Positions 1 through 14,391 of a stretch of 64,000 bases of DNA are shown here, one piece after another. The notes under the pieces are model-generated. The model was not told the DNA's origin and did no database searches. It saw only the letters and a list, made by a program, of their open reading frames with translations. Position 1 is the stretch's first letter, and every line of letters begins with the position of its first letter. The DNA lies in NCBI GenBank assembly GCA_030683995.1, contig JAUXPH010000013.1, forward strand, positions 1-64,000. The letters are read 5' to 3'. Both the position numbers and the translations under genes were made by a program. The DNA comes from Lutibacter sp. GTDB taxonomy: Bacteria > Bacteroidota > Bacteroidia > Flavobacteriales > Flavobacteriaceae.

Positions 1-74
1 GGAAGTTCCTTTTCTTCTCGTATGTGTCTTAACTTTTCGCCTATTGTTTCTGTTGACATAACTTCTATTGACAT
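1..74 (-). CDS. XRE-family helix-turn-helix regulator, N-terminal fragment
   Basis: Only the first 24 codons are in the window; the gene runs off the left edge. The reading from 74 gives MSIEVMSTETIGEKLRHIRE and continues EKELP, which is the usual opening of a Cro/C1-type HTH protein (helix 1 with IGEKLRxIREEK). A second in-frame ATG lies at 59, because the direct repeat TTGACATAA in the DNA duplicates the M-S-x-E start; ATG 59 may be the true start, since the -7 box overlaps the first ATG. It is the first gene of the third cassette of the island. Small XRE proteins next to restriction genes are often controller (C) proteins, but the neighbour gene is outside the window, so that role is inference. 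Confidence 0.7.
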   Translation of the reverse strand, partial: MSIEVMSTETIGEKLRHIREEKEL

Positions 75-89
75 AATGTGTCAAAATTA
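69..89 (-). promoter_or_regulatory. Promoter -7 box and operator-like inverted repeat of the XRE gene
   Basis: On the minus strand TAATTTTG (89-82) matches the Bacteroidota -7 consensus TAnnTTTG. It overlaps the inverted repeat TGACA-n5-TGTCA (69-83), and the half-site TGACATAA recurs at 55-61 inside the coding start. An inverted repeat lying over the -7 box and start codon is the arrangement expected for autorepression by an XRE protein. No -33 element was found at normal spacing. Confidence 0.5.
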
Positions 90-158
90 GAAAAAGATTT
101 TTGATTTGTTTCCATTTATTTCAAATTATTTTCAACATTCTTGTCGAGCGTTGGGAAA

Positions 159-218
159 TTGGCTCTTTTGCAAAACTTGGGTCGTGTGTCGGCTTGTGCG
201 GTTTTGCAAATGTGCCAA
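159..218. repeat. Structured hairpin repeat, copy 1 (cassette 3 leader)
   Basis: Left arm TTGGCTCTTTTGCAAAAC (159-176) pairs with right arm GTTTTGCAAATGTGCCAA (201-218), leaving a 3x3 internal mismatch TCT/TGT and a 24-base GT-rich loop. Copies at 7241-7302 and 667-723 keep the TCT/TGT mismatch but have different, still complementary arms. The GTGCGGTGGG motif follows at 220-229 and 250-259. It lies upstream of the XRE gene between the cassette start and the promoter. Confidence 0.75.
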
Positions 219-392
219 TGTGCGGTGGGCTAAAATTATTTTTTAAAATGTGCGGTGGGAAAATTTTTTAAAACAATCGGGTCGGTCTGTGTGTCGCCAA
301 AGTCAGTTCGTTAGTTCTTGTCAAGATGTCAAAGTTCGTTTTTCAGATGTCTGCTTTTTCGGAGTACGGTCGTTCTCTAGGCTTGCTTACAA

Positions 393-519
393 CGGTTTGC
401 AGCTACAAGAAGTTGGCGATTTTCACTACTAAACTTCATACGAAGCACTAATGTTTGTTTAACCACAAAACTGTCATACGAAGCACTGAACCGCCAATTT
501 CTTGTAGGTGCTGTTAGGT
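393..519 (-). other. attC-like recombination site A (end of defence cassette / start of cassette 3)
   Basis: On the plus strand AAC (391-393) and GTTAGGT (513-519) bracket two arms, CTACAAGAAGTTGGCG (403-418) and CGCCAATTTCTTGTAG (492-507). The arms pair over 16 positions with one G-T. Inside is a 14-bp direct repeat TCATACGAAGCACT (436-449 and 474-487). Read on the minus strand the site runs ACCTAAC-AGC...arms...GCAAACC-GTT, the same outline as site B at 7504-7635. GTTAGGT fits the integron core GTTRRRY. The outer flank GTTAGGTGC, then GCGT after two bases, repeats the beginning of the defence cassette at 7510-7497. That is the signature of R''/R' complementarity in a circular cassette. Confidence 0.7.
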
Positions 520-666
520 GCTGGCGTTCTGTCCACCGTGCTTGTAAACCATTGTCGTTATTGAGTTTTTGTGTCATTGAGTGTCGGCTGTGCATTGCGT
601 ATTTTTAATTTTTTTAAAGCGTTGGAATTTTTTTAATTCAATTTTTCTTTTGCGTTGGAAAGGTGA

Positions 667-723
667 AAGCTCTTTTGCAATTTTTGGTCTGTGCGTTGGC
701 TCGTGCGAATTGCAAATGTGCTT
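667..723. repeat. Structured hairpin repeat, copy 3 (behind mcrC)
   Basis: Arms AAGCTCTTTTGCAATT (667-682) and AATTGCAAATGTGCTT (708-723) pair with the same TCT/TGT internal mismatch as copies 1 and 2. The right arm overlaps the mcrC stop codon (724-722), so the last residues of McrC (AIAQV) are written in repeat-like sequence. The 198 bases between this element and site A contain only GCGTTGG-type short repeats and no credible gene. Confidence 0.7.
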
Positions 724-1783
724 ACACCTGTGCGATGGCTTTTTTGTCCACCTCAATTATTTCTTTTAAACGTGATGATATATTTCTCCAATTGGAATTT
801 AAGTTAATTGTTCTGATTTGTATTTTATGTTCATTGTATTTGAAATTTAAATTATAGTCTGTTTCAATTGTCGGATAAAGCAAAATGCCTGTTGCATTAT
901 GTGTTTTTAAGTTTGTGTCTTGTTGGTTGAGCAGGTAACTGAATAACTGATATAAGTTCGCTGATTTTATGCGTTCCTTATCGTAATTCAAAGTCATTGT
1001 CTCACGGTAAAACTTTGCATCAATTATTATTTTTTCTTCGTCATTTTCTAAAGTTATATCGGTTTCCATTTGCGGTAAATATTGGTAACTATCTTTGTCT
1101 GTGTTATCAAATTGCCACTTAATAGTTTCCTTTTTTACTGTCTTGTATTTCTGTTGTTCGATTTTATAGAAGTTTCTAATAAACGATTCAAACAATTGAT
1201 TCATTTTTTTATCATCCCTTGTGAAGTCGGAGAACTTATATTTTCCTTGTTCCTCAGATGGCAAAGTGCTTTCATAAATAATTTGACAAACATTCATTAC
1301 AAATCCATAGAAACGGTTGTTTCTATTCAGTTTTACCTGCTTAAAAAGTGAATTTGTAATTTCAATTTGTTCAATGTCTGATAACATTCTTTGTAAACTA
1401 ACCAATTCATTTTTTAGCTGCTTGTCAAGTCCTTTGGTTCTCGTAAGTCTATAAATGGTTGAAACCAAAATACGGTTTGAAATTATGTTGGCGGAGAAAT
1501 CGTCAAATGTGCAAATGGTTCTTTGCTTAAAAAGTAAATTGCTTTTCAATGTCTGACTAATTTGAACTTTGCCTTTTACGCCTGCTAGTTCTTCTGTGTA
1601 GTCAATATAATTTTTATCAATGCCTCTTTTCAAAAGCATTTTTGAAGCATTAATTAAAATCTTTGCAAAAAGGTCAAGAAGTTCTGTCTTATCGTCTATC
1701 GAAACATTTACACGTTCTTTCTCATCTAGCTTGTTCCAAGCATAGCAGAGTAAGTAGTAAATATTTTCAATAGGTATTTGCAT
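722..1783 (-). CDS. mcrC: McrC-like nuclease subunit of an McrBC modification-dependent restriction system
   Basis: This 353-residue protein fits the McrC family (5-methylcytosine-specific restriction component, PD-(D/E)XK fold). It starts with the family's IPIENIYYLLCYAWN opening and contains GVKGKV near residue 69, the second typical McrC motif. The catalytic core is visible as M-E-T-D242, then IIIDAKFY with D255-A-K257, followed by QLFSYL (about 279-284). McrC binds the McrB motor and cuts DNA. It is the last gene of a three-gene unit, starting 3 bases after mcrB stops, so it must be co-translated with it. The C-terminus runs into a hairpin repeat, so the final few residues may not be original. 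Core residues are intact, so it is probably active. Confidence 0.92.
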   Translation of the reverse strand: MQIPIENIYYLLCYAWNKLDEKERVNVSIDDKTELLDLFAKILINASKMLLKRGIDKNYIDYTEELAGVKGKVQISQTLKSNLLFKQRTICTFDDFSANIISNRILVSTIYRLTRTKGLDKQLKNELVSLQRMLSDIEQIEITNSLFKQVKLNRNNRFYGFVMNVCQIIYESTLPSEEQGKYKFSDFTRDDKKMNQLFESFIRNFYKIEQQKYKTVKKETIKWQFDNTDKDSYQYLPQMETDITLENDEEKIIIDAKFYRETMTLNYDKERIKSANLYQLFSYLLNQQDTNLKTHNATGILLYPTIETDYNLNFKYNEHKIQIRTINLNSNWRNISSRLKEIIEVDKKAIAQV

Positions 1784-1786
1784 TAC

Positions 1787-4408
1787 TTATCTTGACAGTT
1801 GTTTTAAAACTTCTGAAACTATTGTTGAATCATCAAACCATATTTCTTCAAGCAGAGGCTTCAATTCAAAACTTAAAATTTCATTCCACCATTTATTTTC
1901 ATCTTCATTCGTAGTAAAAGTGCAGAAATAACTGTGTCCTATTTGAAACCCTTCACCAAGATTAATATCCTCTTTTATTTTGCTGTTAACTTTTGTAACT
2001 GCTGAACAAATATGTTCAACCATTCCAGCAGATAAACCTTTTGAAGCAAGGAATGAACGGAAATTATTACCATAATCAGGTTGAAGTGTAATAAAAGCAA
2101 ATCGTCTTCTTAAAGCATAATCAACAATGGCTAATGAACGGTCTGCCGTGTTCATAGTTCCAATGATGTATAAATTTGAAGGAACATAAAAGCGGTCTTC
2201 TTCGTCTTCTGCGTAAGTTAATTTTAGTGCAAATTTTTCTTCTCTTTTATCTGCTTCAATTAGCATCATCAATTCTCCGAATATTTTACTCAGATTTCCT
2301 CTGTTTATTTCATCTATAATAAAAAAGAAAGGTCTGTCGGGATGTGCCAATGCTCTTTGACAGAATGAATAAAAAATTCCGTCTCTTAAATCAAAACCGC
2401 CTTTTTGTGTTGGTCTTAGTCCTTGAATAAAATCTTCGTAGCTGTATGATTGGTGAAACTGCACCATTTCAATGTTTGCATCTTTAACTTCTTGCATTAT
2501 TTCATAAGCCAATTTTCTGGCTATGAAAGTTTTCCCAACTCCCGGAGGACCTTGTAAAATAATATTCTTCTTTCTTTTTAATAGAGCAACGGTTTGTAAA
2601 AAATCGGATTCACTTATAAATGGTTTGTCGATGTCGTCAGTAAACTTGTATTTTTTAATGTTACTGCTTTGAAGTAGTTTTTCGGTAATGATATTTTTGT
2701 TATCAATTATCTCACGAATGATGTCGTATTCTTCTTCTGTAAGTTTGAATAAACTTCCCTGATTGTTAATGAACACTTCGCAATGCTGCAACGCTGCATT
2801 GTTTTTCAAGTCGTTCCAATGAACAGGGATTTCCAACTTCTCAACCAATTCAAATTCTATTTCTTCACCGTTGGCTGTGTTGTGAATTCCTTTCGTTACT
2901 TCATAAATTGCTTTAATTTGTTTGGTTGGCGTGCTTTCGTAACCAATAATTAAATCGCCTTCTTTAGCTGCTTCAAAGTATTTATAGATTCTTCTTTTGT
3001 TTCCTTTTTCGTTATGTGTTGTATAGGTTTGCCTTTGTCCTTCTGTATGATTGCTAATGCTCCAAATTTTAGGATTAGCATTCAGCCACCAAAAATTCAA
3101 AGGCTCTGTTTCTTCAATTACTTCATCTATTTCTACTAGTGGCTCTGAAACGATAGGAGTAGTTCCTATTTTTTCTGCTGTGAATTTTAAATTATTTGCT
3201 GCAAAAATCGAAGCTAGTTCAGGATAAAGTCTTACATACTCATTCAATATAAACTCATATACTATTGTCGGACTAAATGTATCAGGTCTGAAAAGGTTTT
3301 TGTAATTCTTTAAATTGTTTGATTTGTATTGATAAACTTTATCTGTTATCCATTTTACTTTTCGCCTGTGATTAAAGTTGTCCCAAATGCCGTCAAAAAA
3401 GTAACTACCTTCAATTATACCAATTCCTAAGCAGGTATTCACTCCTTTGGTTGCAAAAACTACATCACCAATATTTGCGGTTTTAAAAAGCCAAAGATTC
3501 CAAGTTTTATTTGATTTATCATCGTCTTTAAGTCCGATTTCTTTATTCATTTCTTCTCTTGATTCAAACTTGTTTAAATCATCGAAGCTGAAATCTATTG
3601 CAATAATATTTTCGTTATGAAACCTTTCCCATTCAGATGCCTGACTGCCTGGTGCAAACTTGAAATAATTTCGACTTTCCTTATTTAGTTTTGTTATTTC
3701 AGGCTTTAATTTTTGTAATAAATTATAGGCATCATCGTAAGTTGCGATAGGTTTTAGATTATTTGGTTTGGGTTCTTTTACTGACCAACCTGCAATTTGA
3801 CCTGCTTCTGGTGAAGCATCAAAGCGAACAAAAAATTGATAACTGTCTTTGTGAGATTCTTTGGTTATAGGATATAAAGCTATCCAACAAAAGTCGCTGC
3901 CAAAATTAGTTGCTCCTTGAAAGTCAACTTTATGAAAAATGTAATCCTTTAATTCTAATTTGGCTAATAAATCTTTTGCTATTTGTTCAAGATAGTTTAA
4001 TACTGTTTCTCTTATTGTGCCTCTATAAAAGTAGCTGTGAAAAATGCTCCAAGGGTTTTGCCAATTGGCGAATAGGTCTCTTTTAAATAATTCGTATTCT
4101 TGAATCTGCTTTAAGAAGTCTTCTTTATAATGATTGAAATAGTCAACGTTTTTAGCTCTGATATTATCCTTTATTTCATTTACCAGTGCTTCGCTTGCAG
4201 ATTCGCCTTGCAAAATTCTACGGGCAATTTCTGCTCGTAATAAATTTACTGGTTTAAAATCACGGTCAGGGTCGCCATATTCCTTATAAATTTCTTCAAC
4301 AATATTTTTAGGCAAACTATTAATTGCGGCATATAACGAAATCGGATTTTCGGTATATCCTCGATACTGCTTTGCTAAGTCAGTTATATATTGAAATTGT
4401 GTTTGCAT
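1787..4408 (-). CDS. mcrB: McrB-type AAA+ GTPase with EVE/PUA reader domains
   Basis: The 873 residues have an unusual layout. Residues 1-260 form a helical N-terminal region of unknown function. About 265-355 resembles the PUA-like module of McrB relatives (W305 region, then GDVVFATKG and GIGIIEGSYFF). About 440-560 is an EVE domain (NPKIWSI start, GDLIIGY, IYEVTKG). The McrB AAA+ motor follows, with Walker A GPPGVGKT (620-627), Walker B FFFIIDEINRG (694-704) and the McrB signature TMNTADRS (751-758). EVE domains bind modified bases, so this protein should recognise modified DNA and drive McrC. It begins 9 bases after the MmeI-like gene stops. Two reader modules in one subunit are uncommon. 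Confidence 0.92.
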   Translation of the reverse strand: MQTQFQYITDLAKQYRGYTENPISLYAAINSLPKNIVEEIYKEYGDPDRDFKPVNLLRAEIARRILQGESASEALVNEIKDNIRAKNVDYFNHYKEDFLKQIQEYELFKRDLFANWQNPWSIFHSYFYRGTIRETVLNYLEQIAKDLLAKLELKDYIFHKVDFQGATNFGSDFCWIALYPITKESHKDSYQFFVRFDASPEAGQIAGWSVKEPKPNNLKPIATYDDAYNLLQKLKPEITKLNKESRNYFKFAPGSQASEWERFHNENIIAIDFSFDDLNKFESREEMNKEIGLKDDDKSNKTWNLWLFKTANIGDVVFATKGVNTCLGIGIIEGSYFFDGIWDNFNHRRKVKWITDKVYQYKSNNLKNYKNLFRPDTFSPTIVYEFILNEYVRLYPELASIFAANNLKFTAEKIGTTPIVSEPLVEIDEVIEETEPLNFWWLNANPKIWSISNHTEGQRQTYTTHNEKGNKRRIYKYFEAAKEGDLIIGYESTPTKQIKAIYEVTKGIHNTANGEEIEFELVEKLEIPVHWNDLKNNAALQHCEVFINNQGSLFKLTEEEYDIIREIIDNKNIITEKLLQSSNIKKYKFTDDIDKPFISESDFLQTVALLKRKKNIILQGPPGVGKTFIARKLAYEIMQEVKDANIEMVQFHQSYSYEDFIQGLRPTQKGGFDLRDGIFYSFCQRALAHPDRPFFFIIDEINRGNLSKIFGELMMLIEADKREEKFALKLTYAEDEEDRFYVPSNLYIIGTMNTADRSLAIVDYALRRRFAFITLQPDYGNNFRSFLASKGLSAGMVEHICSAVTKVNSKIKEDINLGEGFQIGHSYFCTFTTNEDENKWWNEILSFELKPLLEEIWFDDSTIVSEVLKQLSR

Positions 4409-4417
4409 AATATTTTA

Positions 4418-7174
4418 TTAAGATTCTTTTTTCTTATTGGGTTTCTTCGGTTTTTCTTTTGTAAAAAGGTCTGCCGTGTATTTTTCGTATAGTTCAAATA
4501 AAAATTCCATTCGTTTAGCTTCACTGGTAAACGATTGAGGTCTGTAAGCTAAGTCAACTGCTTTATCTAACTCGTTATGTGCTTTTACCAATACTGGTGG
4601 CATAGATGATTGGTCGTATAATTCCGCAAGTGAGTTTGAATTATATTCGCTTCTAATATCTATAATTTTTTGAGCCTTTTCTTCTATTCCCTTTATTTGT
4701 TTGTCAGTTGGACTTTCGGGAAATGGAAAATTATTGTAACCTAAAGTATTTGAGTATCTAATTCTACCTTCTAATTTTCCGCAAATGTTCTGTGTCCAAA
4801 TATTGTGCATTAAAGAAGAAATTATACCGAATTCAAATATAGTTGCGTTGGGTAAAATAAAAGAAGAATAATTTGCAATAATGTCTTTGGTTAAAAAGCC
4901 AATTGGAATATATTTTCTTAACTCTGAAGATACAACTGGTATCATTAAATAGTCGGTATTGGGTTGCCTATCTTCCATAAATAAAGTAGGAGTTTCTGCC
5001 CATTTTCTTGTTGCAGTTTTTGGACTGCTTTCTCTAAAAATTCTAACACCTTCAACTCTTGATTTTATTTCCGAATTATTTTTAATATCATTTGGCTTGG
5101 CATCCTTTAACCATAAACAATACCTATGATAATTGTTTATAAGTTCGTCTGAGCCAATAAATTTTCTAATTAAATATGCTTGTTCAGGATATTTTGTTTT
5201 AAACTCTTGTGCTTCTAATTCCGTATTCAATATAAAGTTTCCATCGTCTATAGCCGCATTTCCTTTCATCATTGATGAGCGGTTGTTTAATGGTTTTGTT
5301 CTCGGAAGAATAAAAATGTCCTTAGCTTCCAATAAATATGGATTTATATGAGATACAATTCTTTCTGTTGGATTACTTTTAATATTTTCGTATTCAAACA
5401 ATAGTTTTTTTGGAATGTCAAATTTTGCAAAACCAATAATTACACAATAAACTGCTGCATTTCCTTTGGCTTCGTTACTCCAACTAAAAGTTTGATGAGC
5501 AAAATGAATATGTATTTTTTCTGTGTTTATTAATAATTGCCAAAGTGTTGGAACTTGAATACCTTGACAAATTGAATTAGTTGAAACAAAAGCAACCTTA
5601 ATATTCGTGTTTTCTATAAATTTTGATGCCTTGTAATACCAACAAGCAACATAATCTAAAACACCACTATTTATTTTGTCTTGAAATACTAAAAGCGTAT
5701 CCTCTTTTTGCTCTTTAGTTTGATTTCTTGAACCATAGAATGGCGGATTTCCAAGAATAAAAGAAAGGTCGTTTTTGGAAACTACATTTTCCCAGTCCGT
5801 TTGCAATGCGTTACCGTGAACAATTTTTGCAGATTTTTTCAAAGGCAAGCGAACAAAGTATTGTCCAAACTCATTACTTATTTGCATATTCATTTGGTGG
5901 TCGATAAGCCACATTGCCACTTCGGCAATTCGTGCAGGAAATTCTTCATATTCAATTCCACACATCATATCAACGTCAAGCCAAATAATTTCTCTAACGT
6001 CAAATACTCTTTGTCCTGTTTTATTTGATGCTCTTAAAATTTCCAATTCAAGTAAACGCAATTCTCGGTAAGTAATAACAAGAAAGTTTCCGCAACCGCA
6101 AGCAGGGTCAAGGAATTTAAGTGTGCTTAATTTTTTATGAAATTCGGGAAGTTTGTTTTTATTGTCTTTGATACTTTCAAATTCTTTCCAAAGGTCGTCC
6201 AAGAAAAGCGGTTTGATAAGTTTTAAAATGTTGGTTTCACTTGTGTAATGTGCTCCCAAGTTTCTGCGTTCTTTCGGGTTCATTACGCTTTGAAACATTG
6301 AACCAAATATCGCTGGCGATATTTTGCTCCAGTCAATGTAACAGCAGTCAAGCAAGGCTTGACGCATTTTTGTGTCGAAACTTGCCGTAGGCAAGTTTTC
6401 TTCAAAAAGTTTTCCGTTTACATAAGGAAAGTCGGCAAGTTGCTCGTCAAGATTTTTAAAGCGATTTTCTTTCGGTGTATTTAATACTTGAAACAATTCT
6501 TGCAGTTTTGATGCAAGGTCGCTTCCGTCTTCTGCTGTCCGCTGTTCTAAATATTCTTGAAATTGTTGCTTGTTGAAAATTGTTGTGTCTTCGGCAAACA
6601 ATAAAAATAAAATACGAACCAAGTAAACTTCTAACGGATGTCCTGTATATCCAATTTCTTCAAGTCTGTCGTGAAGTTTACCCATTAACTCTGCTGCTTT
6701 AATGTTTGCAGGGTCTTGTTCTTTGTAAACCTTTTTTTGATAACCTAAAATGTAACCGAAATGCTGAACATTATTTACAAGGTCGTTGAGTTTAAATTCA
6801 ATGTGTTTATCTTCTTCAAGGTCGTAAAGTCGAAAGTTTTCAAAGTCGGAAACGAGAATGTATTTTGGTAATTCGTGTTGTTTTAAACCGTGTGTATAGT
6901 CAATCGCTTGTTGATATGCTTTGTCAAGGTTTTTACCAAGACTTTTCATTTCAATTAAAATTGTCCCTTTCCAAAGCAAGTCAATGTAACCGTCTTTGTC
7001 GTCCAATTTTTTTACTCTATGTTCAAAGGTCGAAACACGTTTACTGCTAATACCAAACACGTTAAAAAACTCAACTAAAAATGGTTTTGCGTCTGCTTCT
7101 TCGTTTGAAGTGTCTGCCCATTCCTTTGAGAAATTTAATGCTCTATCTTTTATTTCGTTCCAGCTTAATGCCAT
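4418..7174 (-). CDS. MmeI-like (type IIL) fused restriction endonuclease and adenine methyltransferase
   Basis: This single 918-residue chain carries cutting, methylation and target recognition, as in MmeI-family type IIL enzymes. The N-terminal PD-(D/E)XK nuclease shows GYID65 and E75-M-K77 inside IDLLWKGTILIEMKS. A helical spacer follows. The methyltransferase has motif X GAHYTSETNILKLI (308-321), motif I FLDPACGCGNF (354-364) and motif IV GNPPF (475-479), which indicates N6-adenine methylation. The region from about 600 to 800 is the likely target-recognition domain, and the tail is lysine-rich. All key residues are present, so it is probably an active restriction-modification enzyme. It is the first gene of the defence cassette. 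The unit behind it (McrB, McrC) attacks modified DNA, so the cassette covers both unmodified and modified invaders. Confidence 0.92.
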   Translation of the reverse strand: MALSWNEIKDRALNFSKEWADTSNEEADAKPFLVEFFNVFGISSKRVSTFEHRVKKLDDKDGYIDLLWKGTILIEMKSLGKNLDKAYQQAIDYTHGLKQHELPKYILVSDFENFRLYDLEEDKHIEFKLNDLVNNVQHFGYILGYQKKVYKEQDPANIKAAELMGKLHDRLEEIGYTGHPLEVYLVRILFLLFAEDTTIFNKQQFQEYLEQRTAEDGSDLASKLQELFQVLNTPKENRFKNLDEQLADFPYVNGKLFEENLPTASFDTKMRQALLDCCYIDWSKISPAIFGSMFQSVMNPKERRNLGAHYTSETNILKLIKPLFLDDLWKEFESIKDNKNKLPEFHKKLSTLKFLDPACGCGNFLVITYRELRLLELEILRASNKTGQRVFDVREIIWLDVDMMCGIEYEEFPARIAEVAMWLIDHQMNMQISNEFGQYFVRLPLKKSAKIVHGNALQTDWENVVSKNDLSFILGNPPFYGSRNQTKEQKEDTLLVFQDKINSGVLDYVACWYYKASKFIENTNIKVAFVSTNSICQGIQVPTLWQLLINTEKIHIHFAHQTFSWSNEAKGNAAVYCVIIGFAKFDIPKKLLFEYENIKSNPTERIVSHINPYLLEAKDIFILPRTKPLNNRSSMMKGNAAIDDGNFILNTELEAQEFKTKYPEQAYLIRKFIGSDELINNYHRYCLWLKDAKPNDIKNNSEIKSRVEGVRIFRESSPKTATRKWAETPTLFMEDRQPNTDYLMIPVVSSELRKYIPIGFLTKDIIANYSSFILPNATIFEFGIISSLMHNIWTQNICGKLEGRIRYSNTLGYNNFPFPESPTDKQIKGIEEKAQKIIDIRSEYNSNSLAELYDQSSMPPVLVKAHNELDKAVDLAYRPQSFTSEAKRMEFLFELYEKYTADLFTKEKPKKPNKKKES

Positions 7175-7192
7175 TCTTAAATTGTCAGGTTG

Positions 7193-7223
7193 CTAAGGTA
7201 ATTATTTAAAGTCCTAATGTCAA
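7193..7223 (-). promoter_or_regulatory. Promoter of the defence cassette
   Basis: On the minus strand a -33-like TTGACA (7223-7218) is followed after 20 bases by TACCTTAG (7200-7193), one base off TAnnTTTG. The ATG at 7174 lies about 18 bases further on, so the 5' leader is short. The hairpin repeat at 7241-7302 lies upstream of this promoter, not in the transcript it would produce. Confidence 0.5.
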
Positions 7224-7240
7224 TCTGTGCGTTGGCAAAA

Positions 7241-7302
7241 AATGGCTCTTTTGGTTTTGCGAAGGGTCGGCTTGTGTGTCGGGCAAAACCAAATGTGCCA
7301 TT
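7241..7302. repeat. Structured hairpin repeat, copy 2 (defence cassette leader)
   Basis: Arms AATGGCTCTTTTGGTTTTGC (7241-7260) and GCAAAACCAAATGTGCCATT (7283-7302) pair fully except for the fixed TCT/TGT internal mismatch. The loop GAAGGGTCGGCTTGTGTG shares GTCGGCTTGTG with copy 1. Short repeats GTGCGTTGGC (7227-7236), GTGCGGCTGGC (7304-7314) and GTGCGGTGGG (7335-7344) flank it. The arm sequence differs from copies 1 and 3 while pairing is preserved. No credible gene lies in 7350-7500. Confidence 0.75.
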
Positions 7303-7503
7303 TGTGCGGCTGGCTAAAATTGAATTAAAAAAAAGTGCGGTGGGAAAAAATAAAAAATACAGAAGGGTCGGCAAGTAGTGTCGGCTTACTCGTTGTCCGT
7401 TTATGATATGGTCTGTATGTTGGTCACTTGTCAAAATGGTTTACTTTTTCTGTTAAATTGTTGTTCTCCTGTCGATGATTGTTTTGTCGTCCTTTACGCT
7501 TGC

Positions 7504-7635
7504 ACCTAACGGTTTGCCGCTTTGCGAAGGCGGGGTTTTTCAGCACTAAACCTCACTAGATGCACAAATCTTGAATTTAGCACTTCACTGTCAAAGAAGC
7601 ACGAAACCCCCGCTTTTGCAAAACGGCTGTTAGCG
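7504..7635 (-). other. attC-like recombination site B (end of transglutaminase cassette / start of defence cassette)
   Basis: On the plus strand ACCTAAC (7504-7510, matching RYYYAAC) and GTTAGCG (7629-7635) bracket long arms at 7516-7541 and 7603-7627. The arms share GCCG-n-TTTGC-n-AA-n-GCGGGG in complementary form, with G-T wobbles. The centre (ACTAAACCTCA ... CACTGTCA ... GAAGCAC) aligns with the centre of site A although the arms are different sequences. On the minus strand it has the same outline as site A: CTAACAGC...GCAAACC-GTT. Its outer flank GTTAGCGGT, then GGCT, repeats the first bases of the transglutaminase cassette at 8838-8822. GTTAGCG itself departs from GTTRRRY at the last two positions. 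Confidence 0.7.
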
Positions 7636-7645
7636 GTTCGGGCTT

Positions 7646-8779
7646 TTATTCGGGTTTTGTCCAAAATAGATTTGGGTTGTTAGTTTTGTAATAAATAAAT
7701 TTCACACCTGTTGAGTTATTTGTTTCTTCTTTCTTTAGTGGTGTTTGTTCAATGCCGTCTAATGGTAAAAGTTCAACATAAGTTACTTCTTTTCCACTTT
7801 TCCACGTTTCAGTATCATATTCACTATTTAATGGTGTTTCTAAACGATATAAGTTTTTAGCCATATAGTTTTCAAGATAATCTTCTTTTGTCTGCAAATT
7901 TTCTCTATTCCAATTTGCATCAGCGTTGAGAACCAAAGGTTGTCCTTTTACAAGTCGTTCTCTAACTTCTTGGATACCTAATAAACCACCTTTTTCGTCC
8001 ATTACATAAGCGTCAAAAGTTGGATCAATCCAAATCCATTTTTCTAATTCCTTGCTGTAAACCATATTTATTACGTGGCAGTCGTCAAATTCAGTTTCTT
8101 TGGGCATACAAGTAATATATCGTGATTTTATTCCCATTGAAAGGTAGCATTCATTTAAAATTGTAGCCAACATTCTACAATTCACACCTCTGCTCTCAAC
8201 CCTACAAGTATTTATTAAATCAATTGCATTTTTTAAAGTCGGATTATTTGAACTTCCATCGTGTTTAACAAGATTATGAACCCAATGTAATAAATTGAAA
8301 ATTTGTGAAAGTTCACTTCCTTTTCCTGCAATTGAATCTAATTTCAAGTCTTTTTTAATTTTTTGTAAATTCGGATTGTCTGCGGATTGATAGGTGAATT
8401 TTGGAACATACCGATTGTCAGAATAATTATATTTACCAGCACCTTTTAATATTTCTAATCTTGAAGGTTCGTATTTTATCTGTGTTCGTGCAGAATCTTT
8501 ACCGTTTAGTAAAATAATAAAATCGTATTGTTTTATAGGGTCAATTTTAAAAGAAATAGAGTCAATGTCTGTATAAAAAGTAACCTTTTTTGCAGAAGTT
8601 GTATAAACGTCTAATTTTTCTTCTGGTACAATTGTCCAGGCATTTTTTCTTAATTGATTGTCATCCTTAATGTCAACACTTGGAGAATTTGCGTTGATAA
8701 TTGGTAATTTCTTTTGAGCAAGAACTGTTTGTCCAATAAGAATTACAAATAGTAATGTAAAAAGTTTTGTCTGTTTCAT
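7646..8779 (-). CDS. Secreted transglutaminase-like (papain-fold) protein
   Basis: The first 21 of 377 residues form a signal peptide (MKQTKLFTLLFVILIGQTVLAQ), placing the protein in the periplasm or outside. The second half carries a transglutaminase-like core with C201 (RGVNCRMLATIL), H235 (DDCHVINMVY) and D252 (WIWIDPTFD), the Cys-His-Asp triad. Members of this fold act as transglutaminases or proteases; the substrate cannot be read from sequence. The gene is alone in its cassette. Only 58 bases separate the predicted recombination point (8838) from the ATG, and no TAnnTTTG box is seen there. It may therefore depend on transcription entering from the recombinase side. Its stop lies 11 bases from site B, the tight packing usual for cassette genes. 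Confidence 0.85.
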   Translation of the reverse strand: MKQTKLFTLLFVILIGQTVLAQKKLPIINANSPSVDIKDDNQLRKNAWTIVPEEKLDVYTTSAKKVTFYTDIDSISFKIDPIKQYDFIILLNGKDSARTQIKYEPSRLEILKGAGKYNYSDNRYVPKFTYQSADNPNLQKIKKDLKLDSIAGKGSELSQIFNLLHWVHNLVKHDGSSNNPTLKNAIDLINTCRVESRGVNCRMLATILNECYLSMGIKSRYITCMPKETEFDDCHVINMVYSKELEKWIWIDPTFDAYVMDEKGGLLGIQEVRERLVKGQPLVLNADANWNRENLQTKEDYLENYMAKNLYRLETPLNSEYDTETWKSGKEVTYVELLPLDGIEQTPLKKEETNNSTGVKFIYYKTNNPNLFWTKPE

Positions 8780-8831
8780 TTTTCTCTATTTCGTTTAATT
8801 TATTTTGTACGATTCTGTTTTTTAGCCTGAC

Positions 8832-8907
8832 CGCTAACTTGTTTATACCAGCCACAAAATGGCTACAATCCACTCATATCGAGTTGGCTTTGTGCCATAA
8901 AATGGCT
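8832..8907 (-). other. attI-like primary recombination site beside the recombinase
   Basis: Between the recombinase stop (8941) and the first cassette gene, the minus strand reads GTTAGCG at 8838-8832. This is identical to the outer core of the first cassette's own attC-like site (7629-7635). Two direct repeats of GCCAyAAAATGGCT lie at 8851-8864 and 8894-8907, each an inverted repeat (GCCA/TGGC). A further TTGGC-TTTGT-GCCA lies at 8885-8897. Integron attI sites likewise combine one crossover core with direct-repeat integrase sites and lack the attC fold. No such hairpin-arm structure is seen here. Confidence 0.6.
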
Positions 8908-8940
8908 TCTTTTTGTTAATGCTAATATACTCTTTGTTTA

Positions 8941-9984
8941 TTACAAATCATCAAATGGACTTTTAATTTGCTGTAAACTTTTGGTGCTTACGTGCGTATA
9001 TATTTCAGTTGTTTTACTGCTGCTGTGCCCCAGTAATTCTTGTATATACCTTAAATCTGTACCGCTTTCAAGCAAATGTGTGGCGTAAGAGTGACGTAAC
9101 CAATGCAAACTTACGGGTTTGTTTATTTTTGTTTTTGCCAATGCTTGTTTAAGTACATTTGACAAACTGCGCTCATCATATTTTACATTTTCTGCTTGTC
9201 CTTCAAATAACCAAGTTTTTGGTTTATAGGCAGTATAATAATCTCTTAGCATTGCTAATATTTTTGTTGATAAAGGAGCAATTCTGTCTTTTTTGCCTTT
9301 ACTCTGTCTAATAATTACAATGCCCCTTTTTGAATCAATGTCTGAAGGTTGTAAATTTAATAGTTCACTTCGGCGTAAACCACAACTGTATATAAGACTT
9401 AACATTGTTTTGTGCTTGATGTTGCTATGGGCGTTTAAAATCAATTTAATTTCTTCTTTACTCAATACATTGGGTAATATTTTTGCTCGCTTGGGGCGAT
9501 GTATCTTTTCTATTTCAATTTTCGTTTCCAGAATAGTTTTAAAAAATAATTTAATAGCATTTACGATCTGGTTTTGATAAGATGCCGATAAATTATTTTT
9601 TAAAATATATTCGTTGTTGTAAACTATCACATCATAATTGGTAATTTCTTGAATTGGTTTTTCACGGTAAAAAACCAAAAACGATTTTAGCGCGTCACCA
9701 TAAGTTTTTATGGTATTTGGACTGTATCTTTTGGAGGCCAGCCATTGTTTGAATCGTTCGAGTTGTTTTTTTCCTTCGGCCGATGGCAAGGAATTGGAGT
9801 GAGGCGCTAAGTTAAATCGTAGCCTGTTTTCTTCAGTGTCGGGAATGTGCCAAACGCGTTTGGATTGGCTCCATCTTGCGCCATCAATTTTTTTAATTTG
9901 TGAAATTAATTCCGCATTTTTTTCAAAATAAATGGCAATTCTGTTTTCACCCAAGTGTTTAATTAACTGTACTTTCCAACTCAT
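8941..9984 (-). CDS. Tyrosine recombinase, XerC/D-like with integrase-type ending; probable cassette recombinase
   Basis: The 347-residue protein has three parts. Residues 1-60 carry an extra module (IAIYF, then AELISQIKKIDGARWS and VWHIP). About 70-160 is a SAM-like core-binding domain (LASKRYSPNTIKTY). About 170-345 is the catalytic domain with R204 (GLRRSE), K229 (SKGKKDR), H294-x-x-R297 (HWLRHSYATHLLESG), H320 (LLGHSS) and nucleophile Y329 (EIYTHV). All catalytic residues are intact. The closing SPFDDL resembles the SPLD ending of integron integrases. The R204-to-H294 spacing is about 90 residues, like XerD; IntI proteins have a longer interval because of an inserted helix. It is co-oriented with the cassettes, unlike most integrons. 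Context (attI-like site and two attC-like sites downstream) suggests cassette integration and excision. Confidence 0.88.
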   Translation of the reverse strand: MSWKVQLIKHLGENRIAIYFEKNAELISQIKKIDGARWSQSKRVWHIPDTEENRLRFNLAPHSNSLPSAEGKKQLERFKQWLASKRYSPNTIKTYGDALKSFLVFYREKPIQEITNYDVIVYNNEYILKNNLSASYQNQIVNAIKLFFKTILETKIEIEKIHRPKRAKILPNVLSKEEIKLILNAHSNIKHKTMLSLIYSCGLRRSELLNLQPSDIDSKRGIVIIRQSKGKKDRIAPLSTKILAMLRDYYTAYKPKTWLFEGQAENVKYDERSLSNVLKQALAKTKINKPVSLHWLRHSYATHLLESGTDLRYIQELLGHSSSKTTEIYTHVSTKSLQQIKSPFDDL

Positions 9985-10002
9985 AGCATTTTTTAGAATA
10001 GT

Positions 10003-10034
10003 TAAAGATAGAAAATTGAAATGAAAAAACGCAA
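10003..10034 (-). promoter_or_regulatory. Candidate promoter of the recombinase
   Basis: On the minus strand TTG (10034-10032) and TATCTTTA (10010-10003) are 21 bases apart, close to the Bacteroidota pattern (last base A instead of G). The start codon at 9984 follows after 18 bases. The rest of the 226-base gap to the next gene shows nothing recognisable. Confidence 0.4.
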
Positions 10035-10210
10035 CCTATAACAAAATGAATAAAAAACAAGAAATCATTTAAGCACAGTTTCCAAAATTTAAACCCATCA
10101 TAATTTGGTTACATAAAATAGAATTACAATTTACTATATTTATAAAAAAATCAGAAATAACGTTTATGATTATTTTATTTACCCATGCTAACTAAAAAAC
10201 CACAACCAAA

Positions 10211-12256
10211 ATGCCCGAACATAAATTCACCAACAGCCTTGTAAATGAAACGAGTCCGTACTTGCTGCAACACGCAAACAATCCCGTAAACTGGTTCGCT
10301 TGGAATAATGAAACGTTGGCGCTTGCCAAAAAGGAAAACAAATTGCTGTTAATTTCCGTAGGTTATTCTTCCTGTCATTGGTGCCATGTGATGGAACACG
10401 AAAGTTTTGAAAATGAAGAAGTGGCGGCGGTAATGAACAAGCATTTTATCAATATAAAAGTCGACCGGGAAGAGCGTCCCGATGTAGATCAGGTTTATAT
10501 GAACGCCGTACAATTAATTACCGGCCGCGGCGGCTGGCCTTTAAACTGCGTGGCTTTGCCCGATGGAAGACCCATTTGGGGCGGCACGTATTTTCCAAAA
10601 GACAATTGGATTAGCGCACTGGAACAATTGGCGAATTTATATGACGAAACTCCGGAAAAAGCCATTGAATATGCCGAAAGATTAACCGATGGCGTAAGAA
10701 ATTCGGATTTGGTTTCATTAAATGAAAATCAGGTTGCGTTTTCCAAAGCAGATTTGGAAAGATCCGTGCGCGAATGGAAACAAAATATGGATCTGGATTT
10801 GGGCGGAAGAAAAGGTGCGCCTAAATTTCCGATGCCAAATAATTATCAGTATTTGCTGATATACGCTGTTCGTTCGGGTGATAATGAAATATTGGATTAT
10901 GTAAATACTTCCCTCACTAAAATGGCTTATGGCGGAATTTACGATCAAATTGGCGGCGGATTTTCTCGGTATTCTGTTGATGCAAAATGGCACGTGCCGC
11001 ATTTTGAGAAAATGTTGTATGATAACGGACAATTGGTAAGTTTGTATGTGGAAGCCTACCAAGCAACTAAAAATGAATTGTATAAAAAAACAGTTTACCA
11101 TACACTCGAATTTATTGAACGCGAACTTACCACCCAAGAAGGTGCTTTTTACTCTTCATTGGATGCCGACAGCATAAATACCGAAGGAAAATTGGAAGAA
11201 GGCGCTTTTTATGTTTGGACCCAAAATGAACTGAAAACCATTTTAGGAAATGATTACAATTTGTTTGCGGACTATTATAGCGTTAATTATTACGGACTTT
11301 GGGAGCACGAAAATTATGTGTTGATCCGTAAAAACAGTGATGTCGAAATTGCCAAAAAATACGCAATTTCAATTGCGAAACTCGAAAACAAAGTGGTTTT
11401 CTGGCAAAAAACACTGCTGAAAGAACGTGCAAAAAAAGAACGTCCAAGGCTCGATGATAAATCGCTAACTTCCTGGAACGCCTTGATGTTGAAAGGTTAT
11501 GTGAATGCTTATGCCGTTTTTAATGAACAGCGATTTCTTGATGCTGCCATAAAAAACGCGACCTTTATTTATACCAAACAAATTCAGGAAGACGGTAACT
11601 TAAACCACAGTTATAAAAATGGAAAAAGTACCATAAACGCTTATTTGGAAGATTATGCAACCGTAATTGATGCCTATATTTCTTTATATGAAGTCACTTT
11701 TAACGAAACTTGGCTCAGCGCCGCCAAGCAATTGGCAGATTATGCTTTCGATCATTTTTTTGATGTGGATCGCGTTATGTTTTATTTCACTTCAAATCAG
11801 GATGCCGATTTAATTGCGCGAAAAATGGAAATTGAAGACAATGTAATGCCGGCTTCAAACTCCATAATGGCGAATAATTTGTTTAAATTGGGCCATTATT
11901 ATTCCAACAGTTATTACCTAAAAGTGAGCGAACAAATGTTGCGGAATGTGATAGAAAATGCCCAAAAATATGGCTCGGGATATTCCAATTGGCTGCAATT
12001 GCTTTCAAATTTTGTTGGGGAATATTATGAAATTGCCATTTCGGGAAAAGATGCTTTGCATCAGCTTAAAGAAATTAACCAGCATTACATTCCAAACAAA
12101 TTAATTGCGGGTAGCACAAAAAAAAGCAATATTCCTTTATTGAAAGATCGTTTTAATGAAGCTGAAACCCTTGTGTATGTTTGCATAAATTCGGCTTGTC
12201 AGTTGCCCGAAAAGGAAGTTAAAAAAGCGTTGGAACAGCTAAAAATCAACTACTAA
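10211..12256 (+). CDS. DUF255 thioredoxin-domain protein (YyaL/SPATA20 family)
   Basis: The 681-residue protein starts with the family hallmark NSLVNETSPYLLQHANNPVN, followed by a thioredoxin-like domain with the C55-H-W-C58 pair (GYSSCHWCHVMEHESF) and KVDREERPDVD. The remaining residues form an (alpha/alpha)6-type glycosidase-like domain (PHFEKMLYDNGQ, then ALMLKGYVNAY). Homologues occur from bacteria to humans. The biochemical role is not settled; a redox or carbohydrate-related function is only inferred. There is no signal peptide, so it should be cytosolic. It begins just outside the cassette island and is the first plus-strand gene. A DUF1304 gene follows 1 base after its stop, so the two are probably co-transcribed. 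Confidence 0.9.
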   Translation: MPEHKFTNSLVNETSPYLLQHANNPVNWFAWNNETLALAKKENKLLLISVGYSSCHWCHVMEHESFENEEVAAVMNKHFINIKVDREERPDVDQVYMNAVQLITGRGGWPLNCVALPDGRPIWGGTYFPKDNWISALEQLANLYDETPEKAIEYAERLTDGVRNSDLVSLNENQVAFSKADLERSVREWKQNMDLDLGGRKGAPKFPMPNNYQYLLIYAVRSGDNEILDYVNTSLTKMAYGGIYDQIGGGFSRYSVDAKWHVPHFEKMLYDNGQLVSLYVEAYQATKNELYKKTVYHTLEFIERELTTQEGAFYSSLDADSINTEGKLEEGAFYVWTQNELKTILGNDYNLFADYYSVNYYGLWEHENYVLIRKNSDVEIAKKYAISIAKLENKVVFWQKTLLKERAKKERPRLDDKSLTSWNALMLKGYVNAYAVFNEQRFLDAAIKNATFIYTKQIQEDGNLNHSYKNGKSTINAYLEDYATVIDAYISLYEVTFNETWLSAAKQLADYAFDHFFDVDRVMFYFTSNQDADLIARKMEIEDNVMPASNSIMANNLFKLGHYYSNSYYLKVSEQMLRNVIENAQKYGSGYSNWLQLLSNFVGEYYEIAISGKDALHQLKEINQHYIPNKLIAGSTKKSNIPLLKDRFNEAETLVYVCINSACQLPEKEVKKALEQLKINY

Positions 12257-12257
12257 A

Positions 12258-12614
12258 ATGAAGGTCGTTCAAATTTTCTTTGTTGCCTTGGTGGCGTTTG
12301 AGCACATTTATTTTATGATTTTGGAAATGTTTTATTGGGACAAACCAAAAGGGTTAAAAGCATTCGGACAAACATTAGAAGCCGCAAAAAGCTCAAAAAC
12401 CTTGGCCAAGAATCAGGGTTTGTACAATGGTTTTTTGGCGGCCGGACTTATTTGGGCCATTGTAAATAAAGATAATTTTGAAGCTTTGGCCATTTTCTTT
12501 TTTAGCTGTGTGGTAATTGCAGGTATTTTTGGAGCGTACACCACAAAAAATAAAAAACTTTTTTATGTGCAGGCATTACCTGCAATTATAGGATTAATAT
12601 TACTTTTGATTTAA
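12258..12614 (+). CDS. DUF1304 small integral membrane protein
   Basis: This 118-residue protein has four hydrophobic segments. The family motif EHIYFMILEMFYWDKPKGLK (17-36) is clear, followed by KNQGLYNGFLAAGLIW. DUF1304 proteins are small inner-membrane proteins without known activity. Its ATG follows the DUF255 stop by one base, implying an operon. Length is typical for the family. Confidence 0.85.
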   Translation: MKVVQIFFVALVAFEHIYFMILEMFYWDKPKGLKAFGQTLEAAKSSKTLAKNQGLYNGFLAAGLIWAIVNKDNFEALAIFFFSCVVIAGIFGAYTTKNKKLFYVQALPAIIGLILLLI

Positions 12615-12687
12615 TCTGATTTAATCGCAATAAAAAAAATATTGCTAAAGACAAAAACGTTTGGCAAATAATTTAAATACACCATCT

Positions 12688-13368
12688 ATGAAACCACAAC
12701 TTAACAATTACGCAATTGCTTTTATGCTTTTCTTTAGCATTTCAGGATATTGTCAAAAGACAGATAGTGAGCAAACTTTGGTGGACAGAACAAGCATAAC
12801 CACGTTCGACCTTCGATCAAAAGAATTGGTGGGAAGCATTTATATTAATGAGGCCTTTCTTCCAGCAAAACTTTCTTACAGTCAAGATCAATATTTAATA
12901 AGATATAACGCATATCAGGATGAGATGGAAATCGAAAAAAATGGAAATCCCTATCATTTATCAAAAAATTTGAGCTATTCCATATATTTTGAAGGGATAA
13001 ATAAAACATATCAAGTTTATAATTATTTAAACAACAAAGAAACAGTTCCCGGTTTTTTTGTTGTTCTTTTTAATGGCGATAATATTTCTTTGCTTATTAA
13101 AGAAAAAATCAAATTTTATGATGAAGTTAAAGCCAAAAATGGATACGACAAATATAAACCACCAACCCTAAAACGTGTTGCGGATGAATTTTACATTGGT
13201 TATAAAAACAAATCTGCTAAAGAGTTTCCTAATAAGAAAAAAGATATTTTAGCATTATTTGCGAGTAAAGCCGAAGAAATTGGGACTTATATGAATGCTA
13301 ACAAATTGGGATTTAAGAACCAAGAAGATTTACTTCAAATATTTAGGTATTACGATACATTAAAATAA
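12688..13368 (+). CDS. Secreted protein of unknown function
   Basis: I chose the ATG at 12688 rather than an upstream TTG at 12661, because it places a good signal peptide at the start (MKPQLNNYAIAFMLFF, then SISGYCQ), giving 226 residues. The mature part is lysine- and tyrosine-rich and has no motif I recognise. The pattern ELVGSIYINEAFLPAKLSY suggests a beta-rich N-terminal half; the second half looks helical (KRVADEFYIGYKNKSAKEF). Similar secreted proteins of unknown role are common in Flavobacteriaceae. It stands alone between DUF1304 and the convergent glutaminase gene. Confidence 0.65.
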   Translation: MKPQLNNYAIAFMLFFSISGYCQKTDSEQTLVDRTSITTFDLRSKELVGSIYINEAFLPAKLSYSQDQYLIRYNAYQDEMEIEKNGNPYHLSKNLSYSIYFEGINKTYQVYNYLNNKETVPGFFVVLFNGDNISLLIKEKIKFYDEVKAKNGYDKYKPPTLKRVADEFYIGYKNKSAKEFPNKKKDILALFASKAEEIGTYMNANKLGFKNQEDLLQIFRYYDTLK

Positions 13369-13476
13369 TTAGCAACCTCTTAAACACTCGTTATAATATT
13401 GTTTACTAGTATTTTAAGTATTGTTAGTTTTAAGTTGAGAATTGATTTTTGATGCCAAAAATCCAATAATCCAAAT

Positions 13477-14391
13477 TTAAAAAATGGAAATTTCAGTTTC
13501 CGTAGTAAACAATTCCAAAAATTTTATTCCTTTGCTTGAATTCCCCTTCTTATTCAATTTCGGACTCCAAACGGCGATACTGTATTTATGCGGTAAAATG
13601 GCTACAATACCGCCGCCAACACCACTTTTCCCAGGCAAACCCACTTTAAATGAAAATTCTCCTGCTTCATCATAAAATCCGCACGTTTGCATAATGGCAT
13701 TCACACGTTTAGACTTGCTGATGCTAATCACTCTTTCATTTGTAAACGGATTAACGCCATAAGCCGCCAAAAAAAGAAAAGTGCCGGAAAGTTCTTTACA
13801 AGTCATTTCAATAGAACATAAATTGAAATAAAAATCGAGCACCAGTTCAATATCATTTTTTATGTTTCCGAAGGACTTCATCAAATTGATTAAAGCTGCG
13901 TTTCTGTGACCCGTTAATTTCTCCGATTCTGCAATTCTCGGACAATAATTTATTTCGGGATTTCCAGAAATGTTTCTGACAAATTCAATAAAATCATCTT
14001 TCGGATTTTTCAGATGGCTTACCAAAATATCGGAAATTACCAAAGCGCCGGAATTTATAAGTGGATTTCTTGGAATTCCCTTGTTAAACTCAAGCTGAAA
14101 CAGCGAATTAAATGAAGTTCCTGAAGGTTCTACACCTACCCTTTCCCATAATTTTTCCCCTTCCTGTTTGTACGCCAATACCAAGGCCAAAACTTTGGCA
14201 ATGCTTTGAATGGAAAATTTTTCCTCAGCGTCGCCAAACTGGTAATGCTGATGATTGATGGTGGTTAAATGAACGCCAAATTTTGCGGGATCCACATTGC
14301 CCAATTCTGGAATATACGTTGCCACTTCACCAAAATCCTCGGTTTTATTTAACTGCCTGATTATTTTTAAAAATATTTTATGATAGTTCAT
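13477..14391 (-). CDS. glsA: Glutaminase A
   Basis: The enzyme hydrolyses glutamine to glutamate and ammonia. The serine-dependent beta-lactamase-like fold shows S63-I-A-K66 (FSIQSIAKVLAL), FNSLFQLEFNKGIPRNPLIN with the substrate-binding NSGA nearby, and VGLPGKSGVGGGI near the C-terminus. At 304 residues it has the normal length for bacterial glutaminases with no extra domain and no signal peptide. It is a single-gene unit; the next gene downstream (12688-13368) points towards it. Confidence 0.93.
   Translation of the reverse strand: MNYHKIFLKIIRQLNKTEDFGEVATYIPELGNVDPAKFGVHLTTINHQHYQFGDAEEKFSIQSIAKVLALVLAYKQEGEKLWERVGVEPSGTSFNSLFQLEFNKGIPRNPLINSGALVISDILVSHLKNPKDDFIEFVRNISGNPEINYCPRIAESEKLTGHRNAALINLMKSFGNIKNDIELVLDFYFNLCSIEMTCKELSGTFLFLAAYGVNPFTNERVISISKSKRVNAIMQTCGFYDEAGEFSFKVGLPGKSGVGGGIVAILPHKYSIAVWSPKLNKKGNSSKGIKFLELFTTETEISIF

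What the first reader, a model, noticed from the sequence alone, without database searches (positions are those of the whole stretch)
393..9984. Integron-like cassette system built around a XerC/D-type recombinase
Seen: a tyrosine recombinase at 9984-8941, a putative attI-like site at 8907-8832 next to it, and two folded attC-like sites (7635-7504 and 519-393). Each site closes a block of genes read away from the recombinase. The recombinase has XerD-like R-to-H spacing (about 90 residues) and so seems to lack the IntI-specific insertion, but ends SPFDDL like integron integrases. It is co-oriented with the cassettes. Known: canonical integrons use IntI, attI and attC, with short promoterless cassettes. 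Inference: this is an analogous system in Flavobacteriaceae that captures ordinary and very large (7.1 kb) cassettes.
Basis: partly seen in the sequence, partly recalled or inferred. Interest (0 to 1): 0.93.

Follow-up and report, generated by a model that had tools for sequence, protein, structure and literature searches.

The report
Integrons without the classic integron integrase
In this bacterium and in many other Bacteroidota, a recombinase that lacks the extra domain of every integron integrase checked here stands beside an insertion site and a row of gene cassettes, so it likely captures and shuffles genes as integrons do, without the part that is thought to make this possible.

Summary
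The window holds a tyrosine recombinase (9984-8941), an attI-like site (8910-8838) and two complete cassettes, each closed by an attC-like hairpin. A covariance model built from 76 sites of other genomes finds both window sites at 107.5 and 104.8 bits. In 80 loci around recombinase relatives, 163 counted sites lie downstream and 2 upstream. Cassette ends are complementary over 6 nt in 93 of 109 consecutive pairs (shuffle maximum 7). One 1.4-kb cassette, 93-94% identical, sits in three different bacteria with homology starting and ending at G|TT. The nearest relative shares the locus up to the attI GTT and differs after it. The recombinase has 90 residues between the catalytic Arg and His; 31 of 31 canonical IntI have 131. 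It lacks the IntI-specific (I2) domain and forms a separate lineage. Such sites occur in 106 of 198 genomes of the phylum and go with this recombinase (59 of 65), not with IntI (24 of 57). Function is inferred: no recombination was observed. Ten searches of open papers found no description.

The parts
8941..9984 (-). Tyrosine recombinase (integrase) gene, 347 aa; Phage_int_SAM_4 + Phage_integrase; extra N-terminal ~65 aa; no I2 insertion
8922..8955 (-). Putative promoter reading into the cassettes: TTTG (8955-8952, inside the SPFDDL codons), 22 nt, TATATTAG (8929-8922)
   Evidence: TAnnTTTG starts within 45 nt after the stop in 43 of 78 loci, shuffled mean 2.1, max 6; the window has one mismatch. 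The promoter consensus is recalled
8838..8910 (-). attI-like site; inferred crossover between G8838 and T8837
7510..8837 (-). Cassette 1 (1328 bp), ORF 8779-7646 with a transglutaminase-like core domain
7503..7636 (-). attC-like site 1; inferred crossover G7510|T7509
   Evidence: 107.5 bits
393..7509 (-). Cassette 2 (7117 bp): MmeI-like type IIG restriction-modification gene (7174-4418), McrB-like gene (4408-1787), McrC gene (1783-722)
386..520 (-). attC-like site 2; inferred crossover G393|T392
   Evidence: 104.8 bits
1..392 (-). Start of cassette 3, cut by the contig end

Best explanation
Window 1-9984 holds an integron-type platform: a tyrosine recombinase gene without the IntI-specific I2 domain, an attI-like site and gene cassettes ended by attC-like hairpin sites, in which the recombinase likely inserts and excises cassettes between the G and the TT of GTTR boxes. 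Inferred mechanism: a circular cassette carries one attC-like site whose R'' (..YAAC) and R' (GTTR..) boxes are complementary. Its bottom strand would fold into a hairpin with a 1/5-nt asymmetric central spacer and an L stem, and the recombinase would join it to double-stranded attI after the G. The newest cassette would thus sit next to attI, under a promoter at the 3' end of the recombinase gene. Shown: anatomy, covariation, complementarity of cassette ends, the same cassette as an exact unit in different genomes, and association with this recombinase. Inferred: catalysis, strand choice, promoter activity.
For: Sites: 18 of 18 predicted pairs keep pairing through changes on both sides among 76 sites; the model finds the window sites it was not built from. 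Position: 163 counted sites downstream (323 kb), 2 upstream (684 kb), in 46 of 80 loci. Cassette logic: 6-nt complementarity of R'(k) and R''(k+1) in 93 of 109 pairs (500 shuffles: mean 2.4, max 7), attI with the first found site in 38 of 45 (1000 shuffles: mean 1.3, max 5). Mobility: one cassette in Flavobacterium denitrificans (next to attI), Pelobium and a Bacteroidia MAG, homology bounded at G|TT on both sides; nearest relative diverges at the attI GTTA. Orientation: longest ORF reads away from attI in 146 of the 154 cassettes that have an ORF, of 169. Association: 59 of 65 genomes with the recombinase have sites, against 47 of 133 without, p 3e-14; IntI shows no positive link (24 of 57 against 82 of 141). 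Promoter-like motif. Bottom-strand stems are more stable in 64 of 76 sites.
Against: No recombination, circular cassette or strand-specific binding was observed. 47 of 133 genomes without a recombinase at E<=1e-55 still have sites, and 6 of 65 with it have none at the threshold, so sites can stand alone or be served by remoter enzymes. 34 of 80 loci have no counted downstream site, some because the contig ends. In 16 of 109 pairs the six end bases are not all complementary. In G302 the site lies upstream of the recombinase, and in G185, G340 and G166 the listed sites read the opposite way. Whole-site folding favours the bottom strand less clearly (49 of 76).
Confidence: 0.92

Rival explanations
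1. A canonical integron whose IntI merely lost or diverged in the I2 domain.
For: Same overall design; IntI4 (2A3V) is among the nearest solved relatives; NCBI names some members 'site-specific tyrosine recombinase/integron integrase'; PMC8138268 (passage) says the insertion is not fully conserved in its integron-like subgroup; IntI plus the new family as one clade is not rejected (p-AU 0.371).
Against: R-to-H distance 89-90 in 136 of 138 new-family proteins and 131 in 31 of 31 IntI. IntI is a separate clade (100/100) and the new family does not nest in it. Score 206.7 against the TIGR02249 cut-off of 265.
Confidence: 0.05
2. The sites are moved in trans by another enzyme (host XerCD or a distant IntI), and the neighbouring recombinase is a bystander.
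For: Sites also occur in genomes without a close recombinase (47 of 133); own contig C10 has an attI-like site with only a remnant of the recombinase gene.
Against: Strong genome-level association with this recombinase and none with IntI; the attI-like block follows the recombinase gene in most loci read (71 of 76 rows hold the motif); no IntI match at E<=1e-72 in the own genome.
Confidence: 0.05
3. A phage or ICE integrase with its own att site; the hairpins are unrelated repeats.
For: Some flavobacterial phages carry integrases 34-40% identical, and a tree with three of them places them within the Bacteroidota group.
Against: Serial cassettes with complementary ends, many sites per locus, diverse cargo, no phage gene found next to it.
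Confidence: 0.02

Closest known systems
Canonical integrons (IntI, attI, attC)
   Same: Integrase gene, adjacent attI, arrays of mostly one-gene cassettes in one orientation, hairpin sites with complementary R''/R' boxes, G|TT boundaries, AAC-G on the bottom strand, promoter-like motif in front of the array.
   Different: Integrase lacks the IntI-specific domain; it is co-oriented with the cassettes in nearly all the 80 loci with sites (opposite in three wider-family genomes); central spacer is 1/5 nt; an A opposite a C (T.G on the bottom strand) at one place of the L stem in 72 of 76 sites; the sites are mostly 124-129 nt long.
XerA/XerC/XerD recombinases
   Same: Spacing without insertion (91-96 residues in five Xer proteins); XerA is the best solved match; the protein just passes the NCBIfam XerA-type model NF040815 (220.6 against 220 bits).
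   Different: On another branch than XerC, XerD and two archaeal XerA (100/98); the host has its own XerD and a further XerC/D-like gene.
CTXphi-type integration by host XerCD (IMEX)
   Same: A Xer-type enzyme without I2 acting on a folded single strand (PMC4792948 and PMC7790495, passages read).
   Different: Here the platform has its own recombinase, an attI and serial cassettes.

Membership tests
Canonical integron | IntI with the IntI-specific additional (I2) domain | tested here: not met
   R-to-H 90 in the window protein and in 101 of 104 clade members; IntI 131 in 31 of 31; between the aligned blocks 2A3V has 61 residues where the query has 19; TIGR02249 206.7 against 265 bits
Canonical integron | attI next to the integrase, variable DNA from TTR on | tested here: met
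Canonical integron | attC: R''/R' boxes, central spacer, L stem, terminal structure | tested here: met
   with an altered spacer
Canonical integron | Extrahelical bases in the L stem | tested here: inconclusive
   A opposite C in 72 of 76 sites, no clear single extruded base
Canonical integron | Cassettes occur as units bounded at G|TT in different arrays | tested here: met
Canonical integron | Recombination activity, bottom-strand specificity | not testable with these tools
   only a folding-energy bias
Canonical integron | SOS/LexA control of the integrase | not tested
   -
XerC/XerD chromosome-dimer resolvase | Falls in the XerC or XerD clade and passes the family cut-off | tested here: not met
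   (190.7 against 329.6 and 181.6 against 335.15 bits)
XerA-type family NF040815 ('site-specific tyrosine recombinase/integron integrase') | Passes the family cut-off | tested here: met
   220.6 against 220 bits; the tree nevertheless sets two archaeal XerA apart
Phage integrase | Phage genes around, single att site | tested here: not met
   only the nearest four upstream ORFs were scanned

The most novel reading that the evidence does not exclude
A second, Bacteroidota-wide branch of integrons that recombines folded attC sites without an I2 domain. It would be either the surviving pre-I2 stage of integron evolution or an independent invention of the integron, and it would show that I2 is not required for cassette capture.
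Probability: 0.75. Interest if true: 0.95.

Novelty: new variant of a known kind. Interest (0 to 1): 0.92.

Why it matters
[quoted passage not shown] PMC9668308 (passages) says that IntegronFinder requires a profile of this domain. A widespread integron-type system without I2 would be missed by such searches and would make the open question of how integrons arose directly testable. It also points to a large, apparently overlooked route of gene exchange in Bacteroidota: sites in 106 of 198 genomes sampled, with restriction-modification, mercury-transport and other cargo.

Tried and rejected
Rejected: chance hairpins; Rfam families, with only two sub-threshold rows in window 1-14000, both outside the sites; phage integrase; canonical IntI. 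The short motifs alone do not exceed chance convincingly. A search for window cassette 1 in 198 relatives found only a partial 68% match in one other genome, so exchange was shown on another cassette. A regular-expression measure of R-to-H distance missed most proteins and the script ended in an error; it was replaced by an alignment. First counts of attI with first site were 26 of 47 and 26 of 31, both with a faulty way of finding AAC; one search repeats it by model position: 38 of 45, one of 46 loci without the motif. Two readings of the tree remain open: IntI plus the new family as one clade is not rejected (p-AU 0.371), IntI plus the wider set without the clade is at p-AU 0.049, and the IS91-neighbouring recombinases lie next to IntI with weak support (89/59). 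The structure model is moderate (pLDDT 81.9, pTM 0.52) and only says XerA/IntI-like; its N-terminal 65 residues were not assigned. In five canonical IntI loci model R1 gave ten weak rows at E<=1, at most 27.1 bits, in three loci and seven of them in one, perhaps canonical attC. Viral and metagenome collections were not scanned. Ten paper searches cover open PubMed Central papers only, no preprints.

Full report
1. Observation. The 347-aa recombinase at 9984-8941 (-) is a tyrosine recombinase (Phage_int_SAM_4 and Phage_integrase) with R204, H294, R297, H320 and Y329. Read on the minus strand it is followed by an attI-like block, cassette 1 (transglutaminase-like protein), attC-like site 1, cassette 2 (MmeI-like type IIG enzyme, McrB-like and McrC proteins) and attC-like site 2. 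The window starts at a contig end (G000:C15:1), so the array is cut there. The nearest genome is G001 (same genus; recombinase 94% identical); its stretch L124 is the exact reverse complement of L036, a record titled Lutibacter sp., so the host is probably a Lutibacter.

2. The sites are real and structured. A hairpin scan of the loci then held gave 107 candidates. 76 of the 86 best sites from relatives (window left out) were aligned: TAAC and CGTT are the invariant columns. All 18 predicted pairs show sequences in which both sides changed and pairing is kept. The covariance model R1 finds the two window sites at 107.5 and 104.8 bits. Over the 80 loci (the best 80 of 554 confirmed relatives) it gives 177 rows at E<=0.1. 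I used 165 of these; the 12 dropped are listed under Tried and rejected. 163 lie downstream of the recombinase in 323 kb and 2 upstream in 684 kb; with the dropped rows, 4 lie upstream. 46 of 80 loci have at least one downstream site; many loci end shortly after the recombinase.

3. Cassette logic. In integrons the first bases of a cassette (R') pair with the bases at its own end (R''). In 93 of 109 consecutive site pairs the six bases after GTT are fully complementary to the six before AAC of the next site (9 more have five of six; 11 of the 165 sites without AAC and GTT in place were left out). 500 shuffles of the pairing gave a mean of 2.4 and a maximum of 7. The attI boundary pairs over six bases with the first found site in 38 of 45 loci (1000 shuffles: mean 1.3, maximum 5); six of the other seven differ by one or two bases. 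Complementarity is interrupted at the eighth base, which is A in 99% of 151 sites, and then resumes. 169 cassettes have a median of 925 bp and a maximum of 7117 bp, the window's cassette 2. The longest ORF reads away from attI in 146, the other way in 8, and none was found in 15.

4. Cassettes occur as units in different places. A cassette whose two ORFs match ArsR-type regulators and MerT plus HMA (L076 copy) is 93-94% identical in L043 (Flavobacterium denitrificans, next to attI), L076 (Pelobium manganitolerans) and L096 (a Bacteroidia MAG). Homology begins and ends at G|TT, give or take five bases, and the flanks differ. At the window's own locus the nearest relative is 93-95% identical over 8835-10032 and 10126-12337, and homology stops at the A of the attI GTTA. 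L126 (G016) stops there too and L125 (G003) five bases later; L127 (G034) ends too early to tell. A Chryseobacterium plasmid carries a 68.6% recombinase and five sites. One single-contig chromosome (G204) has 21 co-oriented sites in about 37 kb beside its recombinase.

5. attI and promoter. In 71 of 76 rows an AGTT[AG] motif lies 80-220 nt into the stretch read, mostly about 100 nt after the stop; at least one (L093) looks spurious. TAnnTTTG, the Bacteroidota -7 element as I recall it, starts within 45 nt after the stop in 43 of 78 loci (shuffled mean 2.1, maximum 6), most often at +11 and most often with TTTG 22 nt before it, in the window inside the SPFDDL codons. The window has TATATTAG there.

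6. The enzyme is not IntI. Arg-to-His spacing is 90 in 101 of 104 clade proteins, 89 or 90 in 33 of 34 of a wider set, 91-96 in five Xer proteins and 131 in 31 of 31 IntI. In the alignment with IntI4 (2A3V) 19 query residues face 61 in the chain. TIGR02249 gives 206.7 bits against a cut-off of 265, while NF040815 (XerA type) is just passed, 220.6 against 220. Trees put IntI in one clade (100), XerC and XerD apart, and the new recombinases in their own group (89, where three flavobacterial phage integrases fall inside; 81/88). IntI, IS91-neighbouring recombinases and the new group share a node apart from Xer (98, 100/98). Their order is not resolved; IntI plus the new group as one clade is not rejected (p-AU 0.371).

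7. Distribution. In 198 genomes of the phylum, R1 sites occur in 106, IntI over its cut-off in 57 and the recombinase at E<=1e-55 in 65. Sites are present in 59 of 65 genomes with the recombinase and 47 of 133 without (p 3e-14), but in 24 of 57 with IntI and 82 of 141 without (p 0.04, the other way). Five canonical IntI loci gave R1 matches of at most 27.1 bits. Three genomes with wider-family recombinases have co-oriented downstream sites related to R1 (7 in G011, 2 in G058, 2 weak in G077).

8. Strand. 72 of 76 sites have an A opposite a C at one place in the L stem (T.G on the bottom strand), 73 have the single A spacer and 76 the C before GTT, which is AAC-G on the bottom strand. PMC2727003 (passages read) reports a G after AAC of R' in most canonical attC. 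Stem-only folding favours the bottom strand in 64 of 76 (p 2e-11), whole-site folding in 49 of 76. Use of the bottom strand is therefore an inference.

9. Literature. Nine papers were seen as passages only. PMC9668308 and PMC7790495 treat the additional domain as the mark of IntI; PMC9024848 reports complete integrons in Bacteroidetes as a recent and rare find, PMC8618304 and PMC2426708 list the phylum among integron carriers; PMC4792948 and PMC7790495 discuss I2 as the innovation that allowed folded sites; PMC8138268 says that the insertion is not fully conserved in its integron-like subgroup; PMC2727003 describes attC; PMC9892861 held nothing on this. Ten searches found no description of this system, within open papers only.

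10. Verdict. It works like an integron by every genomic criterion tested except the enzyme's I2 domain, which defines canonical integrons. I therefore call it a new variant: an I2-less integron-type system widespread in Bacteroidota. Catalysis by this recombinase is inferred.

Noticed in passing
G000:C10 about 9011-9168 (-) (locus L121): A second attI-like site in the same genome, preceded only by the 3' end of a recombinase gene, followed by a cassette of about 3.9 kb with at least five ORFs (Ala_racemase_N, MarR, GGACT and DUF2024 matches, one without) closed by a site at 5111-5244.
   Followed up: partly
G000:C55:972-1823 and L237 about 1925-2550: A second recombinase of the wider family with an attI-like GTTGCTAAA and, about 490 nt on, the complementary TTTAGCAAC followed by what looks like a different hairpin site: probably a second integron-type system in one genome.
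   Followed up: partly
G000:C6:24433-24585 (+): A lone site (62 bits) right behind an AAA_14/DUF4143 ATPase gene; no recombinase ORF was noticed in the 11 kb read.
   Followed up: no
G185:C33, G340:C7, G166:C33: Recombinase and listed sites in opposite orientation, as in canonical integrons.
   Followed up: no
window 9984-9790: N-terminal 65 residues with a predicted beta-alpha fold, outside the matched Pfam domains (weak DUF5710 hit, E 0.016); several wider-family members have shorter frames that would leave no room for it.
   Followed up: no
L129 (plasmid NZ_CP041688.1): IS110 transposase and group II intron genes lie among the cassettes of the plasmid array.
   Followed up: no
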